64,000 nt of DNA from the NCBI RefSeq assembly GCF_027587175.1, contig NZ_JAPCID010000016.1:1-64000 (forward strand). The letters are read 5' to 3'. The DNA is from Solirubrobacter deserti. GTDB lineage: Bacteria; Actinomycetota; Thermoleophilia; Solirubrobacterales; Solirubrobacteraceae. The notes below the pieces were generated by a model, which was not told where the DNA came from, searched no databases, and saw nothing but the letters and a program-made list of their open reading frames with translations. Below are positions 826 through 46,272 of this stretch, piece by piece (position 1 is the first letter of the stretch; every line of letters begins with the position of its first letter). The position numbers and the translations under genes are program-made.

Positions 826-2550
826 TCACATCCGCGCCGGCACGGTGATGCCGAGCAGGCCGAGGCCGCGCTCGAGCGTCGCCGCGGTGAGGTCGCACAG
901 CGCGAGCCGCGACGCGCGCCGCTCCGGCGTGTCCGCCTTGAGCACCGGGCACGCCTCGTAGAAGCGGGTGTAGAGTCCGGCCAGCTCGTACAGGTACGTG
1001 CACAGCCGGTGCGGCTCGAGCGTCTCCGTCATCAGCTCGAGCACGTCGCCGAAGTCCGCGAGCTTGAGCACGAGCGTGCGCTCGATCGGCTCGTCCAGCG
1101 CCGTGACAGCGGTGGAGTGCTCGTCCGCGCGCTCGGCGATCGACGCCGCGCGCACGCACGCGTAGAGCATGTACGGCGCGGTGTTGCCGTCCAGCGCGAG
1201 CATCCGGTCGAAGCTGAAGATCAGGTCGCGCTGCCTCGACGTGGACAGGTCGGCGTACTTGACGGCGCCGATGCCCACCGCGCGCGCGATCGCGGCGCGC
1301 TCGTCCTCGGGCAGGTCGGCGTCGCGCTCGTCGACGATCGCCCGCGCCCGCTGCACGGCGCTGTCGAGCAGGTCGGTGAGCGGGACGGTGCCGCCCGCAC
1401 GGGTCTTGAACGGCTTGCCGTCGTCGCCGAGCATCGCGCCGAACGGGACGTGCTCGGGCCGGACGCCGTTGATCCAGCCCGCGGTGCTCGCCGCGTCGAA
1501 GACCATCGCGAAGTGCTGGGCCTGGCGCGCGTCGGTGACGTAGATCATCCGGTCGGCCTTGAGCTCCTGCGCGCTGTGCCGGATGGTGGCGAGGTCGGTC
1601 GTGCCGTAGCCGTAGCCGCCGTCGGACTTGCGGACCATCAGCACGCTCGGCCGGCCGTCCTGGTCGGTGAAGCGCTCGGAGGCGACGACGACCGCGCCCT
1701 CGCTCTCGGTCGCGACACCGGCATTGAGCAGGTCCTCGACCGTGCCGGGCAGCAGCGGGTTGTAGAAGCTCTCCGCCATCAGGTGCTCGTCGGTGAGCGT
1801 GACGTCGAGTTGCGCGTAGATCGCGTTGATGTGCGCGAGCGAGACGTCGACGAGGTCCTGCCACAGGGCGAGCGTCTGCTCGTCACCGGCCTGCAGCGCG
1901 ACGACGCGGCGCCGCGCGGCCTCCTTGAACTCGGCGTCCTCGTCGAAGCGCGCCTTGGCCTGGCGGTAGAGCTCGCCGAGCGCGGCGAAGTCCCGCAGGT
2001 GCTCGACGCCCGTGTCGAGCATGTGCTGCGTGAGCATCCCGAACTGCGTGCCCCAGTCGCCGAGGTGGTTGGCGCGGATCACGGTGTGGCCCTCGAACTC
2101 GAGCGCGCGCACGAGCGCGTCGCCGATCACCGTCGAGCGCAGGTGGCCGACGTGCATCTCCTTGGCGACGTTCGGCGCGCTGTAGTCGACATAGACCGTC
2201 TGCGGGTGCTCGGCGAGCGGCACCCCGAGCCGCTCGTCGCCCAGCGCGAACGTCGCCCACCTGGCGAGCGCGGCCGGGGCGAACGCGAGGTTGAGGAAGC
2301 CCGGGCCCGCGACCTGGACGCTGGTCAGCAGGCCGCCGGCGTCGCCGAGCTCGGCGGCGACCTTCTCGGCGATCGCGCGCGGCGGCTCGCCGACAACCTT
2401 GGCGAGCTTCATCGCGAAGTTGGCCTGCCAGTCGACGCCCGGCTGGCGGCTGGGCACGAGCAGCGGGTCGACGTCAGGCTGGCCGACGGCGCGCTCGATC
2501 GCCGCCGCCAGCGCTGCCCGCACGCCGTGGGAAGGCGGAAGAGGCGGCAC
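826..2550 (-). CDS. argS: Arginine--tRNA ligase (ArgRS)
   Basis: Charges tRNA-Arg with arginine in the cytosol, using ATP. The 574-residue length is normal. An N-terminal Add1-type domain (about 1-115) is followed by the class I catalytic core with the HIGH-type motif HVGH at 133-136 inside 'SAPNVAKEMHVGHLRST', which is characteristic of ArgRS. 'DGKPFKTRAGG' stands in the region of the KMSKS loop, in the degenerate form usual for ArgRS. The C-terminal DALR anticodon-binding domain ends the protein ('LYTRFYEACPVL'). It is a stand-alone gene with no partner that explains its regulation. The ATG is followed directly by the domain, so the start is good. Confidence 0.97.
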   Translation of the reverse strand: MPPLPPSHGVRAALAAAIERAVGQPDVDPLLVPSRQPGVDWQANFAMKLAKVVGEPPRAIAEKVAAELGDAGGLLTSVQVAGPGFLNLAFAPAALARWATFALGDERLGVPLAEHPQTVYVDYSAPNVAKEMHVGHLRSTVIGDALVRALEFEGHTVIRANHLGDWGTQFGMLTQHMLDTGVEHLRDFAALGELYRQAKARFDEDAEFKEAARRRVVALQAGDEQTLALWQDLVDVSLAHINAIYAQLDVTLTDEHLMAESFYNPLLPGTVEDLLNAGVATESEGAVVVASERFTDQDGRPSVLMVRKSDGGYGYGTTDLATIRHSAQELKADRMIYVTDARQAQHFAMVFDAASTAGWINGVRPEHVPFGAMLGDDGKPFKTRAGGTVPLTDLLDSAVQRARAIVDERDADLPEDERAAIARAVGIGAVKYADLSTSRQRDLIFSFDRMLALDGNTAPYMLYACVRAASIAERADEHSTAVTALDEPIERTLVLKLADFGDVLELMTETLEPHRLCTYLYELAGLYTRFYEACPVLKADTPERRASRLALCDLTAATLERGLGLLGITVPARM

Positions 2551-2577
2551 GCGCTAAGACGCTAGCGCGCGTTGCCC

Positions 2578-3183
2578 TCAAATCCAGCCGAGCCGTCTCG
2601 CCGTCGCGACGGCCTCGTGGCGGTTCGCGGCGTCGAGCTTGCTCATCGCGTTTGAGAGGTAGTTGCGCACGGTGCCGGGCGAGAGCGCGGCGCGGTCGGC
2701 GATCTCGTCGATCGGCGCGCCGCTCGCGGCCAGCTCGAGCACGTCCGCCTCGCGCGGCGTGAGCGGGCTGTCCCCGGCGGCGATCGCCTCGGCCGCGAGC
2801 TCCGGGTCCACATGGCGCCCGCCCGCCTGCACGGTGCGCACGACCGAGGCGAGCGTCACCGACGACGTCGTCTTAGGCAGAAAGCCGCGCACCCCGGCCG
2901 CGAGCGCGCGCTTGAGGTGGCCCGGCCGGCCGTGGCTGGTCACGATCACGCACCCGCAGCGCGGCAGCCGTTGCGCGAGCTGCTCGGCGACGGCGATCCC
3001 GTCCAGCCCGGGCATCTGCAGGTCGAGCACGGCGACGTCGACGGCGTGCTCGACCGCCAGCCGCACGGCCTCGTCGCCGCGCGCGGCCTGCGCGACCACG
3101 TGCAGGTCGTCCTCGAGATCGAGCATCTGCCCGAGCGCGGTGCGGATCAGGTGCTCGTCGTCGGCGAGCAGGATGCGGATCAT
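2578..3183 (-). CDS. NarL/LuxR-family response regulator
   Basis: A 201-residue two-component response regulator. The receiver domain (about 1-120) has the acidic pair at D8-D9 and the phosphoacceptor at D54 ('AVLDLQMPG'). The C-terminal LuxR-type HTH (about 135-200) contains 'LTPREADVLELAASGAPIDEIA' in the family pattern. Its ATG overlaps the stop of the upstream sensor kinase gene (ATGA), so the two are translationally coupled and surely a pair. The kinase follows directly on an ABC-2 exporter, so the regulator probably controls that transporter, in the manner of DesKR/LiaRS-like export systems. The target is inferred from position alone. Confidence 0.93.
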   Translation of the reverse strand: MIRILLADDEHLIRTALGQMLDLEDDLHVVAQAARGDEAVRLAVEHAVDVAVLDLQMPGLDGIAVAEQLAQRLPRCGCVIVTSHGRPGHLKRALAAGVRGFLPKTTSSVTLASVVRTVQAGGRHVDPELAAEAIAAGDSPLTPREADVLELAASGAPIDEIADRAALSPGTVRNYLSNAMSKLDAANRHEAVATARRLGWI

Positions 3184-4328
3184 GCGGTCTCCTGGGAGCT
3201 GAGCGGGCCGGCGCCGGGGAACCGAGCCACCACGATCCAATGGTCGCCCTCGGCTCCGGCTTCGAGAGAGGCGCCGAGCGGCGCGAGCCGTTCCCGCAGG
3301 CCGCGCAGGCCCGAGCCGTCGGTGCCGTCGACCAGGTGGGCGCCGTCGTTGTCGATGCGCAGCTCGCCGTCGGCGAAGGCGATGCGCACGCAACCCGCGC
3401 TCGAGTGGCGCAGCACGTTGGTGACGCTCTCGCGCACGACCCAGCCGGCGGGCTCGTGCCACGCGCGCGGCAGCGCGCCGACGCTGAGCCGGACGTCGAT
3501 GCCGGCCGAGCGCAGCAGCGAGCGCGCGCCCTCGAGCTCGTTGAGGAAGTTCGTGGACCGGTAGCCGCGTGCGAGCTCGCGCGCCTCGCGCAGCGCCTCG
3601 TGGGCAACCGTGCGCACCTCCAGCATGCGCCCGGCGGCGCGTTCGTCGCCGCGGGCCGCGAGCGTCGCGGCGAGCTCGGCCTGGACCGCGATCGTGGACA
3701 GCTGGCGGCCGAGGACGTCGTGGACGTCGCGCGAGAAGCGCAGCCGCTCTTCCACGACGGCCAGCTCGGCCTTGGCACGGCTGGCGTCGTCGAGCTCACG
3801 CACGATGCCGAGCAGCCACAGCGAGGCGCGGACGGTGAACACGAAGAAGGCGCTGACGAAGATCCCGGCGGCGACGCTGATGGGCTGGCCCCCGGTGATC
3901 CCGAACACCGCCGTGGGGACCAGGATGAGCGCGGGCAGGATGCGCCGGCCCGGGACGACCGCGAAGACCAGGATCGCGCTCGCGACCGCGATCAGGACCG
4001 CGGAGCCGCGCGGGTCGCCTTCCAGCCGCAGCTCGGCGAGCACGACGTACGCGGCGCTCGCGACCAGCAGCGGCGCCAGCCGCGGCCACGGCAGCGGGTG
4101 CACGTCCGGGAGGCGGTTCAGCAGCGTCTGCAGCGCCACGTGCGCGCACACGGTGACGACGAGCCCGCCGCCGAGCAGCTCGGCGACGGGCGTGGAGTCT
4201 TCGGCATTGACGACCGCGGTCAGCAGCGCGGAGGCGTTGAACCCCCACAGCACGGTGTACAGCGACCAGCGCGTGTAGAGGCCGACGCGCCCGACGCGCG
4301 ACAGCTCCGACCAGCGCGGCCAGCGCAC
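3180..4328 (-). CDS. DesK/NarX-type sensor histidine kinase
   Basis: A 382-residue membrane histidine kinase. The N-terminal half (about 20-180) holds five or six hydrophobic segments with no large extracellular domain, suggesting it senses the membrane or a partner transporter. A HisKA_3 dimerisation region has the phosphoaccepting H203 in 'SRDVHDVLGRQLS'. The HATPase domain shows 'VTNVLRHS' (N box) and a 'DGSGLRGLRERL' G box. The GTG start lies 2 bp after the permease stop. Longer in-frame starts would run back into the permease gene and give an arginine-rich non-domain tail. The gene forms an operon with the exporter upstream and the response regulator downstream. Confidence 0.92.
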   Translation of the reverse strand: MRWPRWSELSRVGRVGLYTRWSLYTVLWGFNASALLTAVVNAEDSTPVAELLGGGLVVTVCAHVALQTLLNRLPDVHPLPWPRLAPLLVASAAYVVLAELRLEGDPRGSAVLIAVASAILVFAVVPGRRILPALILVPTAVFGITGGQPISVAAGIFVSAFFVFTVRASLWLLGIVRELDDASRAKAELAVVEERLRFSRDVHDVLGRQLSTIAVQAELAATLAARGDERAAGRMLEVRTVAHEALREARELARGYRSTNFLNELEGARSLLRSAGIDVRLSVGALPRAWHEPAGWVVRESVTNVLRHSSAGCVRIAFADGELRIDNDGAHLVDGTDGSGLRGLRERLAPLGASLEAGAEGDHWIVVARFPGAGPLSSQETA

Positions 4329-6439: not shown

Positions 6440-6973
6440 TTACACCCCGGGGGTGCGCAGGAGCGCTTCGATCTCGGCCGCGGTGTACGGGCGGTCGCGC
6501 AGGAGCGTGTGGAGGCAGATGCCCTCCACCAGGGCCTGGAAGGCCTGCCGGTCGGTGCCGGTGAGGGTCGGCGCGAACGTGTCGGCGATCACGTCGAGCC
6601 ACGCGAAGGCCTGGTCGCGCAACTGCGGGCGCCGGATCGCGAGCAGGTACAGCTCGTAACAGGCGATCCACTGGCCGCGGTGGTCGCGCACCTCGTCGGC
6701 GAGCAGCTGCGCGAGGCGGCCCAGGCTGCGGTCACCCTCGGCGCGCAGGGCGGCGACGAGATCGTCCGTGACCTGGTTGAGCGCGGTCGCGGCGAGCTCG
6801 TCGATGCCCCGGAAGTGGTAGCTCGCGGAGGCGAGCGGGACGCCGGCCTGCTCGGCCACGGCGCGGTGCGTCAGGCCGGCGAGGCCGTCGCGCTCGATCA
6901 CGGCCAGCGTGGCCTCGATCAGCTGGTGGCGGCGGGCCTCGCCGCGGGCGCGGCGCCCGTCGGGCTCGGTCAA
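6440..6973 (-). CDS. TetR-family transcriptional regulator
   Basis: A 177-residue TetR repressor. The N-terminal HTH (about 17-62) reads 'LTHRAVAEQAGVPLASASYHF', with the usual YHF end of the recognition helix. The helical C-terminal ligand domain fills the rest. Its ATG overlaps the stop of the SMR transporter gene upstream (ATGA), so it is co-transcribed with the pump. A strong 27-bp dyad sits just ahead of the pump gene and is the obvious operator. It probably represses the pump and itself until a toxic cation or drug binds. Confidence 0.9.
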   Translation of the reverse strand: MTEPDGRRARGEARRHQLIEATLAVIERDGLAGLTHRAVAEQAGVPLASASYHFRGIDELAATALNQVTDDLVAALRAEGDRSLGRLAQLLADEVRDHRGQWIACYELYLLAIRRPQLRDQAFAWLDVIADTFAPTLTGTDRQAFQALVEGICLHTLLRDRPYTAAEIEALLRTPGV

Positions 6974-7293
6974 TGCGCGCCTCCGGCTTCGAGCGCGAAC
7001 ACGCCGGCGACGACCAGCGCGAGCCCGCCGATCTGGATCGTGGTCAGCGTCTCGCCGAAGATCGGGACGCTGAGGATCGCGACGGCGGCGACACCCACGG
7101 CGGCCCAGATGCCGTACGCGATGCCGAGTGGCAGGTCCCGCTGGAGCGCGAGCGTGAGCAGGGTGAAAGCGGCGATGTAGCCGACGACGACCACGACGCT
7201 GAAGCCGAGCTTGGAGAAGCCCTCGGACGCCCGCAGGCTCATGGTGGCGATGACTTCGACGCTGATCGCGCCGGCGAGGAAGACGTATCCCAT
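6970..7293 (-). CDS. Small multidrug resistance (SMR/EmrE-type) transporter
   Basis: A 107-residue four-helix membrane transporter that exchanges protons for cationic drugs or guanidinium-like compounds. The essential membrane glutamate is E13 in 'GAISVEVIATMSL', matching E14 of EmrE. The motif 'GIAYGIWAAVGVAA' in helix 3 is also classical. The ATG at 7293 is preferred because a purine-rich AAAAGGG lies 6-7 bases ahead. A GTG nine bases further upstream is in frame but would overlap that site. It is co-transcribed with, and probably controlled by, the tetR gene that follows. Confidence 0.93.
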   Translation of the reverse strand: MGYVFLAGAISVEVIATMSLRASEGFSKLGFSVVVVVGYIAAFTLLTLALQRDLPLGIAYGIWAAVGVAAVAILSVPIFGETLTTIQIGGLALVVAGVFALEAGGAH

Positions 7294-7309
7294 GTCGAGC
7301 ACCCTTTTC

Positions 7310-7336
7310 TGAACGATCTTCTAGGAAGTTCGTTCA
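7310..7336. promoter_or_regulatory. 27-bp dyad, probable TetR operator
   Basis: The outer arms TGAACGA and TCGTTCA are perfect inverted repeats, and inner arms CTTC and GAAG lie around a short TAG centre. Only five positions break the symmetry. It sits 16 bp ahead of the SMR start and about 45 bp ahead of the divergent sigma-factor gene, so a bound repressor could affect both promoters. Assignment to the neighbouring TetR is by position and symmetry. Confidence 0.75.
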
Positions 7337-7381
7337 ACTTTAGCGTGTCACGTTGTGGCGTTCAACCGGAAGAGTTCAGTG

Positions 7382-7936
7382 GTGGCCGATTTCAGCCAGC
7401 TGAGCGACGAGGAGCTGCTCCGGCGCACACCCCGTGACGCGGCGGCGTTCGACGCGTTCTACGTGCGCCACGAGCGGCTCGTGCTCGGGTACCTGCGCAA
7501 GCGCACGGCGTCCGCGGACGTCGCGATCGACCTCGCGGCGGAGACGTTCGTCGCCGCGCTGGCGTCGGTGAAGCGCTACCGCGCGTCCGAAGGGCCGGCC
7601 GTCGCGTGGCTGCTCGGGATCGCCCGGCACAAGCTGCTGCGCTCGGTCGAGCGCGGCCGGGTGCAGGAGCGCGCGCGGCGCAAGCTGGGCGCGCCGCGCC
7701 TGGAGCTGATCGACGAGCGGCTCGAGCGCGTGGACCAGCTCGGCAACCGGTCGGTGGACGACCTGCTCGCGCAGCTGCGCCCGCGGGAGGCGGAGGCGAT
7801 CCGCGCGCGGGTGATCGAGGAGCTGACCTATCCGGAGCTGGCCGAGCGGATGCGCTGCTCGACGCTCGTCGCGCGCAAGCACGTGAGCCGCGGGCTGCTG
7901 ACCCTGAGAACGATCATGGAGCACGACGATGTCTGA
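7382..7936 (+). CDS. ECF-type RNA polymerase sigma factor
   Basis: A 184-residue sigma-70 family protein with region 2 (about 15-80, 'DLAAETFVAALASVKRYR') and region 4 (about 125-180, 'LTYPELAERMRCSTLVARKHVSRGL' as the HTH). The usual region 1 and 3 are absent, as in ECF factors. The GTG at 7382 follows a GGAAGAG ribosome site. A further in-frame GTG at 7355 would add nine residues. The stop overlaps the start of the next gene, which encodes a membrane protein probably working with it. The divergent promoter region is shared with the SMR-tetR operon. Confidence 0.9.
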   Translation: MADFSQLSDEELLRRTPRDAAAFDAFYVRHERLVLGYLRKRTASADVAIDLAAETFVAALASVKRYRASEGPAVAWLLGIARHKLLRSVERGRVQERARRKLGAPRLELIDERLERVDQLGNRSVDDLLAQLRPREAEAIRARVIEELTYPELAERMRCSTLVARKHVSRGLLTLRTIMEHDDV

Positions 7937-41354: not shown

Positions 41355-42239
41355 ATGTGTCCGATGCTCCCCGCCATGCCCACCGCTTCGCCGCCGACCC
41401 CGGACGGACGCGAGCTCGGCGACGGCCTCGGAATCTTTCTCCAGCGCATCGCCCGCACGCGGCTCCTGACCCCCGCTGAAGAGCTCGAGCTCGCCCGCCG
41501 CATCGAGCGCGGCGACCTTGAAGCCAAGGACCGCATGATCGAAGCCAACCTGCGACTCGTCGTGCACCTCGCCAAGCGTTTCCAGCGCGAGGACTCCGGC
41601 ATGACGTTGCTCGACCTGATCCAGGAAGGAACGATCGGGCTCGTGCGCGCCGTGGAGAAGTTCGACCACCGGCGCGGCTTCCGCTTCTCCACCTACGCGA
41701 CGCTCTGGATCCGCCAGGCCATCGGCCGCGCCATGTCAGAGAAGGGCCGCACCGTGCGCCTGCCCGTGCACGTCGGCGACCGCGTCCGCAAGCTGCAGGC
41801 CGTCGAGCGCCGCCTGGCCATGTCGCTGGGCGCCACGCCGACGTCGGTCGAGCTGGCCGACGCCCTCGAGTGGACCGAGGCCGAGGTGGCCGACGTCCGC
41901 CGCATCGCCATGGCGCCGGTCTCGCTCGAGGCGCCCGTGGGCGACGACGGCGACGCCGAGCTCGGCCACCTGCTCGCCGACGAGGGCCCCACGCCCGAGG
42001 AGTCCGCCGCGGTCTCCCGCATGCACGCCGACCTCGGCACCGTGCTCGCTGGGCTGGGCGGCCTGGAGCGCCGCGTGCTCGAGCTGCGCTTCGGCCTCGG
42101 CGCCGAGGCCCCGCACACGCCCGGCCAGGCCGCGCGCGTGCTCGGCATCACCCCCCGCCGCGTGCGCTGCGCCGAGGACCGCGCGCTGCGCCACCTGCGT
42201 GCGTCGCCGGCCACCGGCGCGCTGCGCGACGCCGCCTGA
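41355..42239 (+). CDS. RpoD-family (group 2/3) sigma factor
   Basis: A 294-residue sigma-70 protein with region 1.2 ('DGLGIFLQRIARTRLLTPAEELELARRIERGD'), region 2 with the full -10 recognition segment ('DLIQEGTIGLVRAVEKFDHRRGFRFSTYATLWIRQAIGRAM'), region 3 and region 4 ('LERRVLELRFGLG' with HTH 'TPGQAARVLGITPRRV'). It lacks region 1.1 and is shorter than the housekeeping factor, so it is an alternative SigB/HrdB-like factor. In-frame ATGs at 41364 and 41376 are also possible; AGGG spacing favours 41364. No anti-sigma gene is adjacent. A hairpin terminator follows. Confidence 0.94.
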   Translation: MCPMLPAMPTASPPTPDGRELGDGLGIFLQRIARTRLLTPAEELELARRIERGDLEAKDRMIEANLRLVVHLAKRFQREDSGMTLLDLIQEGTIGLVRAVEKFDHRRGFRFSTYATLWIRQAIGRAMSEKGRTVRLPVHVGDRVRKLQAVERRLAMSLGATPTSVELADALEWTEAEVADVRRIAMAPVSLEAPVGDDGDAELGHLLADEGPTPEESAAVSRMHADLGTVLAGLGGLERRVLELRFGLGAEAPHTPGQAARVLGITPRRVRCAEDRALRHLRASPATGALRDAA

Positions 42240-42253
42240 CCCGCTCCGAGGCG

Positions 42254-42286
42254 AACGAACGTCCCGCCCCTGCAGGGACGTTCGTT
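42254..42286 (+). terminator. Hairpin after the sigma-factor gene
   Basis: AACGAACGTCCC and GGGACGTTCGTT form a perfect 12-bp stem with a 9-base loop, starting 15 bases after the sigma-factor stop and ending in a short T-rich stretch. It is a probable intrinsic terminator. Confidence 0.8.
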
Positions 42287-42297
42287 TCCGCGGCCCC

Positions 42298-42344
42298 GGG
42301 GTGCCGCCATCGCCCGCCGACAAGACGGCCGGTGGCGGCACCCC
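42298..42344. repeat. Second inverted repeat behind the sigma-factor gene
   Basis: GGGGTGCCGCCA (42298-42309) and its exact complement TGGCGGCACCCC (42333-42344) flank 23 bases. It lies between the sigma-factor terminator and the pseudo-caspase gene. It could be a second terminator, or an operator for the gene that starts 67 bp on. Confidence 0.6.
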
Positions 42345-42410
42345 CGACCCGCGTCGCGCTCCGCGCGTCTCTCCGGCGCGTCCTGAGCGCGGCCACGCCA
42401 TGATTCGCGC

Positions 42411-43424
42411 GTGGCCGGCCGCTACGCCCTGATCGCCGCACCCGCCGACGACGAGGACGCCACCGCGCTCGCCGGCCTGCTCGGCGATCCGCGCCGCGGC
42501 GGGTACACCGTGGAGCGGGCGCAGGACGGCGAGGCGGTCATGCGCTTTCTGGCCGCGCGCACGCCGACGGACGTCGTGCTCGTCCACACCGACCGCGTCC
42601 CCGTGGACCCCGAGGCACTCGCCGCCTGCCGCAGCACCCACGTGCTCGTGATCGCCGCCGGCCGCCGGCTCGCGCCCGAAGCGGGTCCGGGCCGCGCGGT
42701 CCTCGCCGGCGCGTCCACGCGCGCGATCGTGCGCGTGCTGCGCGACGGCAGGGCCGACGGGAACGCCGACGGGGACATCACCGCGCGCGAGCTCCACAAC
42801 CGGCTCGCGCACACGATGACGCTCGACTTCCGCGACGAGCTCGAGACGCCGTTCGTGGTCACGCACACGCAACGCCACGCGCGGGCCCGCGAGCGCGAGC
42901 TGCGCCGCAACCGCCGCGAGCACCGGCAGGAGCTCAGCGTGCGGTCGCTGCGCGTCGCCGCGGCGGCCGGAGGCGTCGCGCTGCTGGGCTCGCTGCCGCT
43001 GATGTGGGTCTTCGGCGGCAGCGGCCTCGAGTACGCGTTCGCCGGCGACACGGCGTGGCCGTCGCGGATCGCCCCGCTGCTGTGCCTGCTCACGGCGCTC
43101 ACCGGCTTGGGCTTCGCGGCCACCCGCCACGGCGACACGGCGCTGGCCGCGCTCGTGAGCGCGAGCGTGGGCGGCATCTACGGCCTCATGGACCGCTTCG
43201 CCGAGCCGGACCTCGGCCTGGGCGTGCTGATCGCCTTCCTGGCCCTCGCGCTGCTCGCGCTCAGCTCCCTGAGAGCGATCCTCAGACGCCTGGAGTACGT
43301 CGGAACCGCCGCGTTCGGCGCCGCGTGTCTCGGCTACCAGGTCGTCGGTCCGCGCAGCGTCGGCGTCATCGTGGTAGCCGTCTTCCTTCTCGCCGCCGGC
43401 CTCGTCGGCACCCGCAACGTATGA
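42411..43424 (+). CDS. Degenerate caspase-like domain with EF-hand loop and membrane helices
   Basis: A 337-residue protein from a GTG start. Residues 1-150 read like a shrunken caspase (peptidase C14) domain: first strand 'RYALIAAPADDEDATALAGLLGDPRRGGYTVERA', central strand 'TPTDVVLVHTDRV', and the late block 'GRAVLAGASTRAIVRVLRDG'. The catalytic 'GHG' histidine and 'DCC' cysteine blocks are absent. D116 to E127 (DGNADGDITARE) is a perfect EF-hand loop. A basic stretch (about 150-172) is followed by some six membrane helices. It is coupled (ATGA) to a second such gene. Calcium-dependent membrane sensing is possible; function unknown. Confidence 0.7.
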   Translation: MAGRYALIAAPADDEDATALAGLLGDPRRGGYTVERAQDGEAVMRFLAARTPTDVVLVHTDRVPVDPEALAACRSTHVLVIAAGRRLAPEAGPGRAVLAGASTRAIVRVLRDGRADGNADGDITARELHNRLAHTMTLDFRDELETPFVVTHTQRHARARERELRRNRREHRQELSVRSLRVAAAAGGVALLGSLPLMWVFGGSGLEYAFAGDTAWPSRIAPLLCLLTALTGLGFAATRHGDTALAALVSASVGGIYGLMDRFAEPDLGLGVLIAFLALALLALSSLRAILRRLEYVGTAAFGAACLGYQVVGPRSVGVIVVAVFLLAAGLVGTRNV

Positions 43425-44077
43425 ACCGCTACGCCTTGATCGCCGCTCCCGACGCGCAACCGCTCGCGCGTGCGCTCCGTGCCCGCGGCGGGTTCGAGGT
43501 GGAGCGCACGACCGACCCGGCGGCGATCGAGGCGTTCCTCGCTGCGCGGCGCAAGGACGACGTGGTGCTCGTCCACTTCGCCGGTGTCGCGGCCCCGGCG
43601 GGCTTCGCGCGCTGCCGCAGCCAGGCGTTGCTGGCCGTGTTGGGCGACGACGTCGAGCTGCGGCCGGCGGAGGGGCAGGCCGTCATCAGGGGCGTCCCGA
43701 CCCGCGCGCTCACGGACGCGCTCACCGGCGCCGACCGCAACGGCAACGGGCGGATCAACGCCAACGAGCTGTTCCGCTTCCTGCACGACCACGCGCCTGA
43801 GGGGTCCGAGCCGGTGATGGACAACCGGCTGCGTGAGCCCTACCGCGTGGCCGACGTCCGTAGACGGCGGTGGCCGCATTGGCTCGACGTGACAGTCGGC
43901 GGCGCGTCCTCGCGCTGGTCGCGGCGATGTACCTGTTCGTGTTCACCGACATCAAGACGCGCGACGTGCACTTCAACCTCGCGATGGGGGCGATGGGTGC
44001 GCTGGTGGCGGCCTTCACGCTCGTCGGCCCGGGCTGGATCCCGATGCTGGCCGGGGCGGGCTCGATGGTGCTCCTGA
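43421..44077 (+). CDS. Second pseudo-caspase/EF-hand protein, probable frameshift near its end
   Basis: Residues 1-140 are a paralogue of the preceding protein: 'NRYALIAAPDAQPLARALRARGGFEVERTTDP', 'RRKDDVVLVHFAGVA' and 'GQAVIRGVPTRALTDALTG'. D105 to E116 (DRNGNGRINANE) forms an EF-hand loop. From about residue 150 on, this frame becomes arginine, tryptophan and cysteine-rich with no domain character. At the same point a neighbouring frame starts to encode membrane helices. The gene is probably frameshifted near 43840-43900, or the membrane part is a separate overlapping gene starting at 43870. The start is ATG with ATGA overlap. Confidence 0.62.
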   Translation: MNRYALIAAPDAQPLARALRARGGFEVERTTDPAAIEAFLAARRKDDVVLVHFAGVAAPAGFARCRSQALLAVLGDDVELRPAEGQAVIRGVPTRALTDALTGADRNGNGRINANELFRFLHDHAPEGSEPVMDNRLREPYRVADVRRRRWPHWLDVTVGGASSRWSRRCTCSCSPTSRRATCTSTSRWGRWVRWWRPSRSSARAGSRCWPGRARWCS

Positions 44078-44139
44078 CCGGATTCGAGCTCGCCCGGCTG
44101 CACAACCTCAACGGCGCCGCCGAACGCGGCGGCGCCTGA
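43870..44139 (+). CDS. Membrane segment frame behind the second pseudo-caspase
   Basis: An 89-residue frame from a GTG. A basic start ('ALARRDSRRRVLALVAAMYLFVF') is followed by three hydrophobic segments and a short tail. It corresponds in place to the membrane half of the first pseudo-caspase protein, though it is shorter. It is either the detached membrane part of a frameshifted gene or a small separate membrane protein translated within the preceding frame. It ends 3 bp from the convergent ppk1 stop. Confidence 0.62.
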   Translation: MAALARRDSRRRVLALVAAMYLFVFTDIKTRDVHFNLAMGAMGALVAAFTLVGPGWIPMLAGAGSMVLLTGFELARLHNLNGAAERGGA

Positions 44140-44142
44140 CGT

Positions 44143-46272
44143 TCACTCGCTCGAAGCGCTCGCCTCGGCCGCGGCCGAGGCGTGCGCGGCCATCAGCTCG
44201 CGCTGGACGTTGCGCTCCTCGCCGCCGTCCGGCGTGCGCCGCGTCCACTCGCCGTCCGTGCCGAGCTCCCACGAGTTCGTGTTGTCGGCGAAGCAGCGGT
44301 CCAACGTGTCCAGCAGCTCCGCGCGCAGCGACTCGTCGCGCACCGGCGTGAGGAGCTCGACGCGCGTGTCCAGGTTGCGTGGCATCAGGTCGGCCGAGCC
44401 GATGTAGACGAGCGGGTCGTCGGGACGGTCGAAGGCGAAGATGCGCGAGTGCTCGAGGAAGCGCCCGACGACCGAGACCACGCGGACGTTCTCCGACACG
44501 CCCGGGACGCCCGGCTTCAGACAGCAGATGCCGCGCACGTTGATCTCGACCTCGACGCCGGCCTGCGAGGCGCGATACAGCGCCCGGATGCTCTCCTTGT
44601 CCACGAGCGAGTTCATCTTCAGGCGGATTCGGCAGGCCTGGCCCTCGGCGTGCGCGGCGATCGTCTTGTCGACCTCGTCGATGAAGCCCTGGCGCATGTG
44701 CGCTGGCGCGACGAGCACCTTGCGGTAGCCGCGCGGCCGGGCGAACCCGGTCAGGAAGTTGAACATGTCGGCGACGTCGTTGCCGAGCTGCTCGTCGCAC
44801 GTGAACAGGCCGAAGTCCGTGTACAGGCGCGCGGTCTTGGCGTTGTAGTTGCCGGTGCCGACGTGCAGGTAGTGGCGCACGCCGTCGCCCTCGCGGCGCA
44901 CCACGAGGATGCACTTGGCGTGCGTCTTGAGGGCGGGAAGGCCGTAGACGACGTGCACGCCCGCCTCTTCCAGCGCGCGGCCCCACTGGATGTTCGCGCG
45001 CTCGTCGAAACGCGCCTTGACCTCCACGAGGCACACGGCCTGCTTGCCACGCTCGGCGGCGCGGATCAGCGCCGGCACCAGCGGCGAGTCGTCGCTCGTC
45101 CGGTACACCGTCTGCTTGATCGCGAGCACTTCCGGGTCGTTGACGGCCTGCTCGACGAAGCGCTCGACCGAGCTCACGAACGAGTCGTACGGATGGTGCA
45201 GGAGGATGTCGCGCTTGCGCATCGCGCCCAGCACGTCCGGCTGCTCGTCCTCGTCGGGCTGCAGCAGCGGCTGCGTGACGGGCGACCACGGCGGGTCGCG
45301 CAGCTCGCTGAAGCCGGGCAGGCCGACGATCGCCCACAGGTCCTTGAGGTCGAGCAGCGAGTCGACCTCGAACACGTCCTCGGGCTCGACCTCCAGCGCC
45401 CGCGTGATCTGCTCGCGGATCGGCGCGCTCATGCCCGCCGAGACCTCCACGCGCACGGTCTCGCCGAAGCGCCGGGCGCGCAACTCCTCCTCGACGGCCT
45501 GCAGCAGGTCGTCGGCCTCGTCGGACACCGTGAAGTCGGCGTCGCGCGTGACCCGGAAGACGGCGTGGTCGAGGATCTCCATGCCCGGGAAGAGCACGTC
45601 GAGGTTCTCGGCGATCAGCTCCTCGAGCGTCACGAACGTGCGCCCGTCGACCGGCACGAAGCGGGGCAGCATCTCCTTGGGCACCTTCACGCGGGCGAAC
45701 GTCTCGACCTCGGTGACGGGGTCGCGCACGATCACGCCGAGCGACAGCGACAGGTTGGAGATGTACGGGAACGGCCGCCCGAGCCCGACCGCCAGCGGCG
45801 TCAGGACCGGGAAGATCTGGCGCCGGAAGCGCTCGTCCAGGGTCCGGCGCTCGCGGCTCTGGATCTCGTCGTAGCCGACGATGCGGATGCCGTGCTCGGC
45901 CAGCGCGGGCCGCAGCTCGCGGTGCAGGCAGCGCGACTGGCGCTGCGTGTGCTCGCGCACCAGCCTCCGGATGGCGTCGAGCGTCTCACTCGGCGTGCGC
46001 CCGTCCTGCAGCGGCTTCTGGATGCCGGCCTCGATCTGGTCGTGCAGACCGGCGACGCGGACCATGAAGAACTCGTCCAGGTTGGAGGAGACGATCGCGA
46101 GGAACTTCAGGCGCTCGAGCAGCGGGACGCTGGGGTCCTCGGCGAGCTGCAGCACGCGATCGTTGAACTCCATCCACGAGGTCTCGCGATTGAAGTAGAG
46201 GCCCGGATCCTTGAGATCCGGGGCAGGCGGTGTCGCAGGCGGACTGGTGACGTCGGTCACATCGGGCATCAT
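44143..46272 (-). CDS. ppk1: Polyphosphate kinase 1
   Basis: A 709-residue PPK1, which makes polyphosphate from ATP. All four domains are recognisable: N domain ('YFNRETSWMEFNDRVLQLAED'), head domain, and the two phospholipase-D-like C domains with 'ILLHHPYDSFVSSVERFVEQA', the autophosphorylated histidine in 'LPALKTHAKCILVVRRE' and 'LHVGTGNYNAKTARLYTDFGLF'. 'SADLMPRNLDTRVELL' is the second PLD-type motif. It is in an operon behind ppx, with 33 bp between them. The C-terminus has an Ala/Ser/Glu-rich tail of about 20 residues. Confidence 0.97.
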   Translation of the reverse strand: MMPDVTDVTSPPATPPAPDLKDPGLYFNRETSWMEFNDRVLQLAEDPSVPLLERLKFLAIVSSNLDEFFMVRVAGLHDQIEAGIQKPLQDGRTPSETLDAIRRLVREHTQRQSRCLHRELRPALAEHGIRIVGYDEIQSRERRTLDERFRRQIFPVLTPLAVGLGRPFPYISNLSLSLGVIVRDPVTEVETFARVKVPKEMLPRFVPVDGRTFVTLEELIAENLDVLFPGMEILDHAVFRVTRDADFTVSDEADDLLQAVEEELRARRFGETVRVEVSAGMSAPIREQITRALEVEPEDVFEVDSLLDLKDLWAIVGLPGFSELRDPPWSPVTQPLLQPDEDEQPDVLGAMRKRDILLHHPYDSFVSSVERFVEQAVNDPEVLAIKQTVYRTSDDSPLVPALIRAAERGKQAVCLVEVKARFDERANIQWGRALEEAGVHVVYGLPALKTHAKCILVVRREGDGVRHYLHVGTGNYNAKTARLYTDFGLFTCDEQLGNDVADMFNFLTGFARPRGYRKVLVAPAHMRQGFIDEVDKTIAAHAEGQACRIRLKMNSLVDKESIRALYRASQAGVEVEINVRGICCLKPGVPGVSENVRVVSVVGRFLEHSRIFAFDRPDDPLVYIGSADLMPRNLDTRVELLTPVRDESLRAELLDTLDRCFADNTNSWELGTDGEWTRRTPDGGEERNVQRELMAAHASAAAEASASSE

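What the first reader, a model, noticed from the sequence alone, without database searches (positions are those of the whole stretch)
42411..44139. Tandem pseudo-caspase/EF-hand membrane proteins
Two adjacent, ATGA-coupled genes each start 'RYALIAAP', continue with a caspase-like strand order and the 'GRAVLxxxxTRA' block that in true caspase-like proteins follows the catalytic region, and each carry a canonical 12-residue EF-hand loop (DGNADGDITARE, DRNGNGRINANE). Neither has the catalytic GHG histidine or DCC cysteine. The first has about six membrane helices, and the second has helices in a shifted frame. In caspase families of bacterial conflict systems (EACC1-associated type) the same block order is known with active residues. 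Here it looks as though the peptidase core was deleted and the fold reused as a calcium-responsive membrane module. Its neighbours are a sigma factor on one side and polyphosphate genes on the other.
Basis: partly seen in the sequence, partly recalled or inferred. Interest (0 to 1): 0.68.

Follow-up and report, generated by a model that had tools for sequence, protein, structure and literature searches.

The report
Stripped-down dead caspases in soil bacteria
Two neighbouring genes of a Solirubrobacter soil bacterium encode membrane-linked relics of a protein-cutting enzyme (a caspase): the cutting parts are gone, but the fold and a calcium-binding-type loop remain, and some relatives still carry the intact enzyme at the same chromosomal spot.

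Summary
In detail: two ATGA-overlapping ORFs, each with a caspase-like core and one 12-residue EF-hand loop, neither with catalytic His or Cys. AlphaFold models of both N-terminal domains match caspases (Z about 13; Foldseek probability 1.00 for the second). The strongest evidence is positional. Next to the same sigma factor gene, two relatives carry a catalytically complete EACC1-type caspase (NF047832), each preceded by an EACC1 gene (over Pfam's cut-off in one, 1.2 bits under in the other). Species branching inside have the dead version (window, S. taibaiensis, a third species), an empty site, or a C-terminal remnant. All five dead copies share the same five internal deletions (12-16, 6-9, 27-29, 15-16 and 17 residues), which remove active-site loops, so stripping happened once, before duplication. 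The EF-hand was inherited, not added. dN/dS of 0.32-0.44 indicates that the stripped domain was kept by selection; the membrane half is almost unconstrained. The second gene looks decayed: its membrane helices lie in a shifted frame. I judge it a genus-restricted, loop-stripped pseudo-caspase: a new variant of a known kind. Calcium-responsive signalling to the membrane is plausible but untested.

The parts
42411..43424 (+). P1: pseudo-caspase (A type), 337 aa: caspase-fold domain, EF-hand loop, Arg-rich linker, 5-6 membrane helices
   Evidence: homologues in two other Solirubrobacter species at 54-62% identity
42417..42860 (+). caspase-fold domain of P1 (about residues 3-150) lacking catalytic His and Cys
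   Evidence: AF2 pLDDT mostly 84-90 with dips; VIA-align Z 12.9 to metacaspase 4, all 50 listed entries caspase-like; hhalign to intact caspases 98.6%, E 5.7e-16
42756..42791 (+). EF-hand loop DGNADGDITARE of P1
   Evidence: ligand-type residues kept in all five copies
42948..43415 (+). membrane-helix region of P1 (about residues 180-334)
   Evidence: weak NCBIfam match to Rv2732c family membrane protein, E 0.0015, far below cut-off
43421..43870 (+). P2: pseudo-caspase domain with EF-hand loop, the conserved coding part
   Evidence: own AF2 model pLDDT 88, caspases by Foldseek prob 1.00 and VIA Z 13.1
43733..43768 (+). EF-hand loop DRNGNGRINANE of P2
   Evidence: Pfam EF-hand_1 E 0.0088, below gathering score
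43871..44077 (+). out-of-frame tail of ORF2, not coding-like in this frame
   Evidence: codon-position GC 0.48/0.91/0.68 instead of 0.77/0.51/0.93
43870..44139 (+). P3: 89-aa ORF with 2-3 hydrophobic helices in the shifted frame, probably the disconnected membrane part of P2
   Evidence: coding-like GC 0.71/0.50/0.90; no relative in the other species of the genus
41355..42239 (+). flanking marker: sigma-70 (RpoD/SigA-like) gene
   Evidence: present at the site in all Solirubrobacter genomes searched and in G117
44143..46272 (-). flanking marker: polyphosphate kinase 1
   Evidence: syntenic in G134-G138
42254..42286 (+). perfect 12-bp inverted repeat after the sigma gene, possible terminator separating it from P1
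   Evidence: not flagged by the consensus terminator scan

Best explanation
P1 and P2 are degenerate descendants of an EACC1-type caspase that stood at this chromosomal site. SHOWN by computation: predicted caspase fold; loss of both catalytic residues with five shared loop deletions; retention of one EF-hand loop; an intact EACC1-caspase pair at the same site in two relatives outside the clade; purifying selection on the stripped domain. INFERRED: the protein no longer cuts. Its caspase-EF domain, placed in the cytoplasm by the Arg-rich segment before the first membrane helix (positive-inside rule), serves as a regulatory or binding module that may change shape on binding Ca2+ or another divalent cation and acts through the attached membrane helices. 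P2 is a tandem copy whose membrane part has been disconnected by a frame change and is probably decaying. Identity and origin: about 0.95. Cation-responsive membrane module as the working function: about 0.4.
For: Fold. Profile match to intact caspases also without the EF part (96.4%, E 1.3e-9); score 102 for the full profile against at most 22 for shuffled and 18 for reversed controls. Synteny sigma-X-ppk, X being an NF047832 caspase in G136 and, next to sigma, in G117, with EACC1 (PF19953) directly upstream, 24.3 bits in G136 (cut-off 23.6) and 22.4 in G117. Tree of sigma plus ppk, rooted on G117, places the four species with dead copies or a remnant inside. Same deletion pattern in all five dead copies. 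dN/dS 0.32-0.44 in the caspase/EF part, upper 95% bounds 0.49-0.64. EF ligand-type positions kept in five of five copies.
Against: Nothing shows metal binding, expression or a partner. Single unpaired EF-hand loops can be structural or inert. The membrane half evolves at dN/dS 0.62-0.99, which is weak support for a precise membrane function. The gene has been lost in G134 and is absent in G137, so it is dispensable. Descent of the membrane domain from that of the intact caspase is only suggestive (score 18.6 against at most 16.3 in 40 shuffles).
Confidence: 0.6

Rival explanations
1. Relic: the EACC1-caspase system was inactivated and the leftovers are drifting towards loss, with no present function.
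For: Empty site in G137 and C-terminal remnant in G134; EACC1 partner gone; frame change in P2; near-neutral membrane half and dS about twice that of flanking genes.
Against: Reading frame open in four full-length copies (P1, two A-type relatives, one B-type); dN/dS 0.32-0.44 in the caspase/EF part; EF loop kept after duplication and translocation; codon-position bias typical of genes. For P2/P3 this rival is the more likely reading.
Confidence: 0.25
2. Decoy or dominant-negative: the dead caspase binds partners of an intact EACC1-caspase, or an inhibitor made by an invader, as proposed for inactive effector domains of bacterial conflict systems (Kaur et al. 2020, PMC7159879).
For: Origin in a conflict-system caspase; the window's genome has another catalytically complete caspase at G000:C86 with an EACC1-like ORF upstream, 19.9 bits, below the cut-off; precedent.
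Against: S. taibaiensis (G138, 96% complete) has two dead copies and no PF00656 caspase at E 0.001, so an endogenous caspase is not a general target. The active-site loops are deleted, so a substrate-like or inhibitor-binding surface is probably gone.
Confidence: 0.13
3. Not a caspase: a generic Rossmann-like domain with a chance EF-hand-like loop.
For: No Pfam or NCBIfam caspase hit.
Against: Fold match lists fully occupied by caspase-like proteins, profile match with controls and positional orthology.
Confidence: 0.02

Closest known systems
EACC1-associated caspase (NCBIfam NF047832; Kaur et al. 2020, System 4, PMC7159879)
   Same: Same locus in two relatives, same strand order, same EF-hand-like loop at the end of the domain, C-terminal membrane helices in the G136 protein
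   Different: No catalytic His/Cys, five loop deletions, no EACC1 partner gene, not detected by the family models
Pseudo-orthocaspases (Klemencic et al. 2019, PMC6426788)
   Same: Bacterial caspase homologues without the His-Cys dyad
   Different: Those were found through p20 homology and classed by substituted or missing dyad residues (Tyr/Ser named in the abstract), 90% in Alphaproteobacteria and Cyanobacteria, 3 of 636 in Actinobacteria; here the catalytic segments are excised, leaving about 150 of 245 residues, and PF00656 does not see the protein
c-FLIP (animal inactive caspase-8 relative)
   Same: Inactive caspase fold kept in evolution (analogy; [quoted passage not shown]
   Different: Unrelated lineage; no membrane helices or EF-hand (general knowledge)

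Membership tests
EACC1-type caspase (NF047832) | caspase fold | tested here: met
   AF2 plus VIA-align and Foldseek
EACC1-type caspase (NF047832) | catalytic His (CHG) | tested here: not met
   CH opposite gaps in all five copies
EACC1-type caspase (NF047832) | catalytic Cys (DCC) | tested here: not met
   whole segment, residues 129-143 of the intact G136 protein, deleted
EACC1-type caspase (NF047832) | match to NF047832 or PF00656 over cut-off | tested here: not met
   no match for P1 or P2; the G136 and G117 proteins score 169-170 bits, cut-off 140
EACC1-type caspase (NF047832) | EACC1 gene immediately upstream | tested here: not met
   none found by tblastn in the window or the other dead loci; present in G136 and G117
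EACC1-type caspase (NF047832) | common descent | tested here: met
   same site between sigma and ppk, profile match with controls
EF-hand | 12-residue loop with ligand-type residues at 1, 3, 5, 12 and Gly at 6 | tested here: met
   both proteins and all homologues
EF-hand | helix-loop-helix around the loop | tested here: met
   helices 101-110 and 123-131 in the P1 model; 94-103 and 114-123 in the P2 model (models only)
EF-hand | Pfam EF-hand score over gathering cut-off | tested here: not met
   16 bits against 25.4 for P2, no match for P1
EF-hand | Ca2+ binding | not testable with these tools
   needs purified protein
Pseudo-orthocaspase | caspase homologue with substituted or missing catalytic dyad | tested here: met
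Pseudo-orthocaspase | p20 domain recognisable by the Pfam caspase model | tested here: not met
   no PF00656 match for the window proteins or their three full-length relatives

The most novel reading that the evidence does not exclude
A conflict-system caspase was turned into a non-enzymatic, cation-sensing membrane protein by excising every active-site loop while keeping the fold and its EF-hand, and the unpaired EF-hands of the two translationally coupled products (or of A and B copies) pair with each other to form the working sensor.
Probability: 0.12. Interest if true: 0.75.

Novelty: new variant of a known kind. Interest (0 to 1): 0.5.

Why it matters
It gives a natural before-and-after series for the conversion of a bacterial caspase into a non-enzyme at one chromosomal site, with intact system, stripped copies, remnant and empty site in close relatives. 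It also shows that inactive caspases can be trimmed until standard family models miss them, so surveys based on the p20 model will undercount them. And it points to an EF-hand-like loop that is part of these EACC1-type caspases themselves, which makes cation control of the active family testable.

Tried and rejected
Pfam, NCBIfam and PADLOC scans gave no caspase or defence hit for P1, P2 or P3. A sequence search of the PDB with alignment A3 returned, among the 60 rows shown, only calmodulins and a calcium-binding protein through the EF loop. Foldseek with the full-length P1 model gave one caspase (CED-3, E 0.055) at the top of membrane-helix noise; the realignment and the domain-only P2 model settled it. 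Two weak search hits, G075 and G098, were not pursued further: the ORFs read around them show no sign of a caspase. Homology of P3 to the last helices of P1: not above shuffles. Membrane domain against the C-terminus of the intact G136 caspase: only suggestive. No match on plasmids or phages. Class- and phylum-wide profile searches found no stripped copy outside the genus; phylum sampling was sparse, and the profile misses even the syntenic intact caspases, so absence is not proof. No Rfam family in the region. A programmed frameshift in P2 was considered, but there is no comparative evidence for it.

Full report
Observation. The region holds two forward ORFs: P1 at 42411-43424 (337 aa) and P2 starting at 43421, with an ATGA overlap. 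Each starts RYALIAAP and carries one EF-hand loop, DGNADGDITARE and DRNGNGRINANE. These are the only two matches to the loop pattern in six frames of the window, and shuffled sequences of the same composition give a match in 0.04% of trials. Codon-position composition shows P1 and the first 150 codons of P2 to be coding. At about 43870 the coding signal leaves the P2 frame and continues in the frame of a separate 89-codon ORF, P3, which holds the hydrophobic helices. The same DNA, without a single difference over 7 kb, is in a second assembly of the species, so an error of one assembly is unlikely unless both derive from one isolate.

Caspase fold. Pfam and NCBIfam caspase models do not see these proteins. 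An AlphaFold model of P1, built with three relatives, is confident over most of residues 1-150 (block means mostly 84-90, with dips to 58 and 65). Realignment of Foldseek's candidates puts metacaspase 4 first at Z 12.9 (2.6 A over 142 residues), and all 50 listed entries are caspases, the paracaspase MALT1 or legumain. P2 1-150, modelled with other dead copies only, has mean pLDDT 88 and gives Foldseek probability 1.00 to caspases and Z 13.1. A profile of the five dead copies matches a profile of six catalytically complete bacterial caspases at 98.6% probability, E 5.7e-16; without the EF-hand part at 96.4%, E 1.3e-9. Reversed profiles score 17-18 and column shuffles at most 22, against 102 and 62. 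E-values of a single pairwise comparison are not those of a database search; the controls carry the weight.

Origin. Homologues were found only in the genus Solirubrobacter: a second assembly of the same species, one copy in G135, and two in G138, whose contigs are those of S. taibaiensis JAPDDQ01. Searches at family, order, class and phylum level found no other stripped copy. In the window the genes lie between a sigma-70 gene and polyphosphate kinase 1. In G136 (same genus) that interval holds a 122-aa ORF matching EACC1 (PF19953, 24.3 bits, cut-off 23.6) and a 611-aa protein with a full NF047832 caspase domain and C-terminal helices. G117, of another genus in the family, has the same order of sigma, EACC1 (22.4 bits, just below cut-off) and caspase, after which the contig ends. 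G137 has 114 bp between the flanking genes. G134 has 370 bp with a 29-residue C-terminal remnant 66% identical to the G135 protein (tblastn 1.3e-12). A tree of sigma plus ppk, rooted on G117, groups the window species, G138, G134 and G135 (95% bootstrap), with G137 next and G136 outside. The intact EACC1-caspase pair is therefore the likely ancestral state of the site, stripped on the way to the four inner species; an intermediate loss and return of a stripped copy cannot be excluded.

How it was stripped. Relative to the G136 caspase, all five dead copies lack residues 12-23, 54-59, 89-115, 129-143 and 163-179, with small differences at the edges. These cover the loop after the first strand, the segment after the catalytic His (the CH pair itself lies opposite a gap), the DCC loop and the loop after the fifth strand. 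About 150 of 245 residues remain. Sharing of the pattern by P1, P2 and the A and B copies of G138 means that the deletions most likely came before the duplications.

EF-hand. The six catalytically complete relatives carry the same loop in the same place, ADRDGDGxVSVxEL or close variants. So the EF-hand-like loop belongs to the caspase lineage and was inherited. In the two syntenic intact proteins the Gly6 of the loop is replaced (DRDQDRWISVRE, DRDQDHWISVRE), while all five dead copies have Gly6 and ligand-type residues at positions 1, 3, 5 and 12. In both models the loop sits between two helices. Metal binding is untested.

Selection. For the three A-type copies dN/dS is 0.32-0.44 in the caspase/EF part (upper 95% bounds 0.49-0.64) and 0.62-0.99 in the membrane part; the flanking sigma and ppk genes give 0.05-0.21. 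dS is estimated with a simple method in a very GC-rich genome, so ratios are approximate, but the contrast inside the same gene is seen in all three pairs. The stripped domain was kept by selection while the membrane half drifted nearly freely as long as it stayed hydrophobic.

Function. Protease activity is very unlikely on sequence grounds. The Arg-rich stretch before the first helix suggests that the caspase-EF domain is cytoplasmic (positive-inside rule, inference). The most economical reading is a non-enzymatic regulatory or binding domain, possibly cation-responsive, attached to the membrane. The decoy model of Kaur et al. 2020 (PMC7159879) is an alternative, but S. taibaiensis has two dead copies and no recognisable active caspase. 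P2/P3 is best read as a tandem copy in decay; P3 has no relative in the other species of the genus.

Relation to known things. Pseudo-orthocaspases are established (PMC6426788), so inactivity alone is not new. New here, as far as the held literature shows, are the loop-stripped form that family models miss, its derivation at one locus from an EACC1-caspase system, and the retained EF-hand loop. I rate it a new variant of a known kind.

Noticed in passing
L051 (G134) about 1888-1977: Intergenic remnant of the lost gene: C-terminal helix HQLVGPRRWVWLVAGAAALVGGAWSLLKRR followed by a stop, 66% identical to the end of the G135 protein.
   Followed up: yes
window 43861-44139: The P2 frame and the frame with the helices overlap; a TAG at 43861 closes the second frame upstream, so P3 can only start at GTG 43870 or later, or be reached by a shift after 43864.
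   Followed up: partly
window 42254-42353: Two strong inverted repeats between the sigma gene and P1: a perfect 12-bp pair and a 28-nt pair at 82%; role unknown.
   Followed up: partly
L023 (G000:C86) 1492-3465: A second, catalytically complete caspase in the same genome (PF00656 E about 1e-16; NF047832 125.8 bits, below cut-off) with an EACC1-like ORF upstream (19.9 bits, below cut-off).
   Followed up: partly
L017 (G138:C688) 6459-7469: The A-type copy of S. taibaiensis lies away from the sigma-ppk site, directly after a universal-stress-protein-like ORF (name from its look only), so the family has moved within the genome.
   Followed up: no
L034 (G028) 1507-2856: EACC1-type caspase fused to an RDD membrane domain (PF06271), with an EACC1-like ORF upstream: a different membrane partner for the same caspase type.
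   Followed up: no
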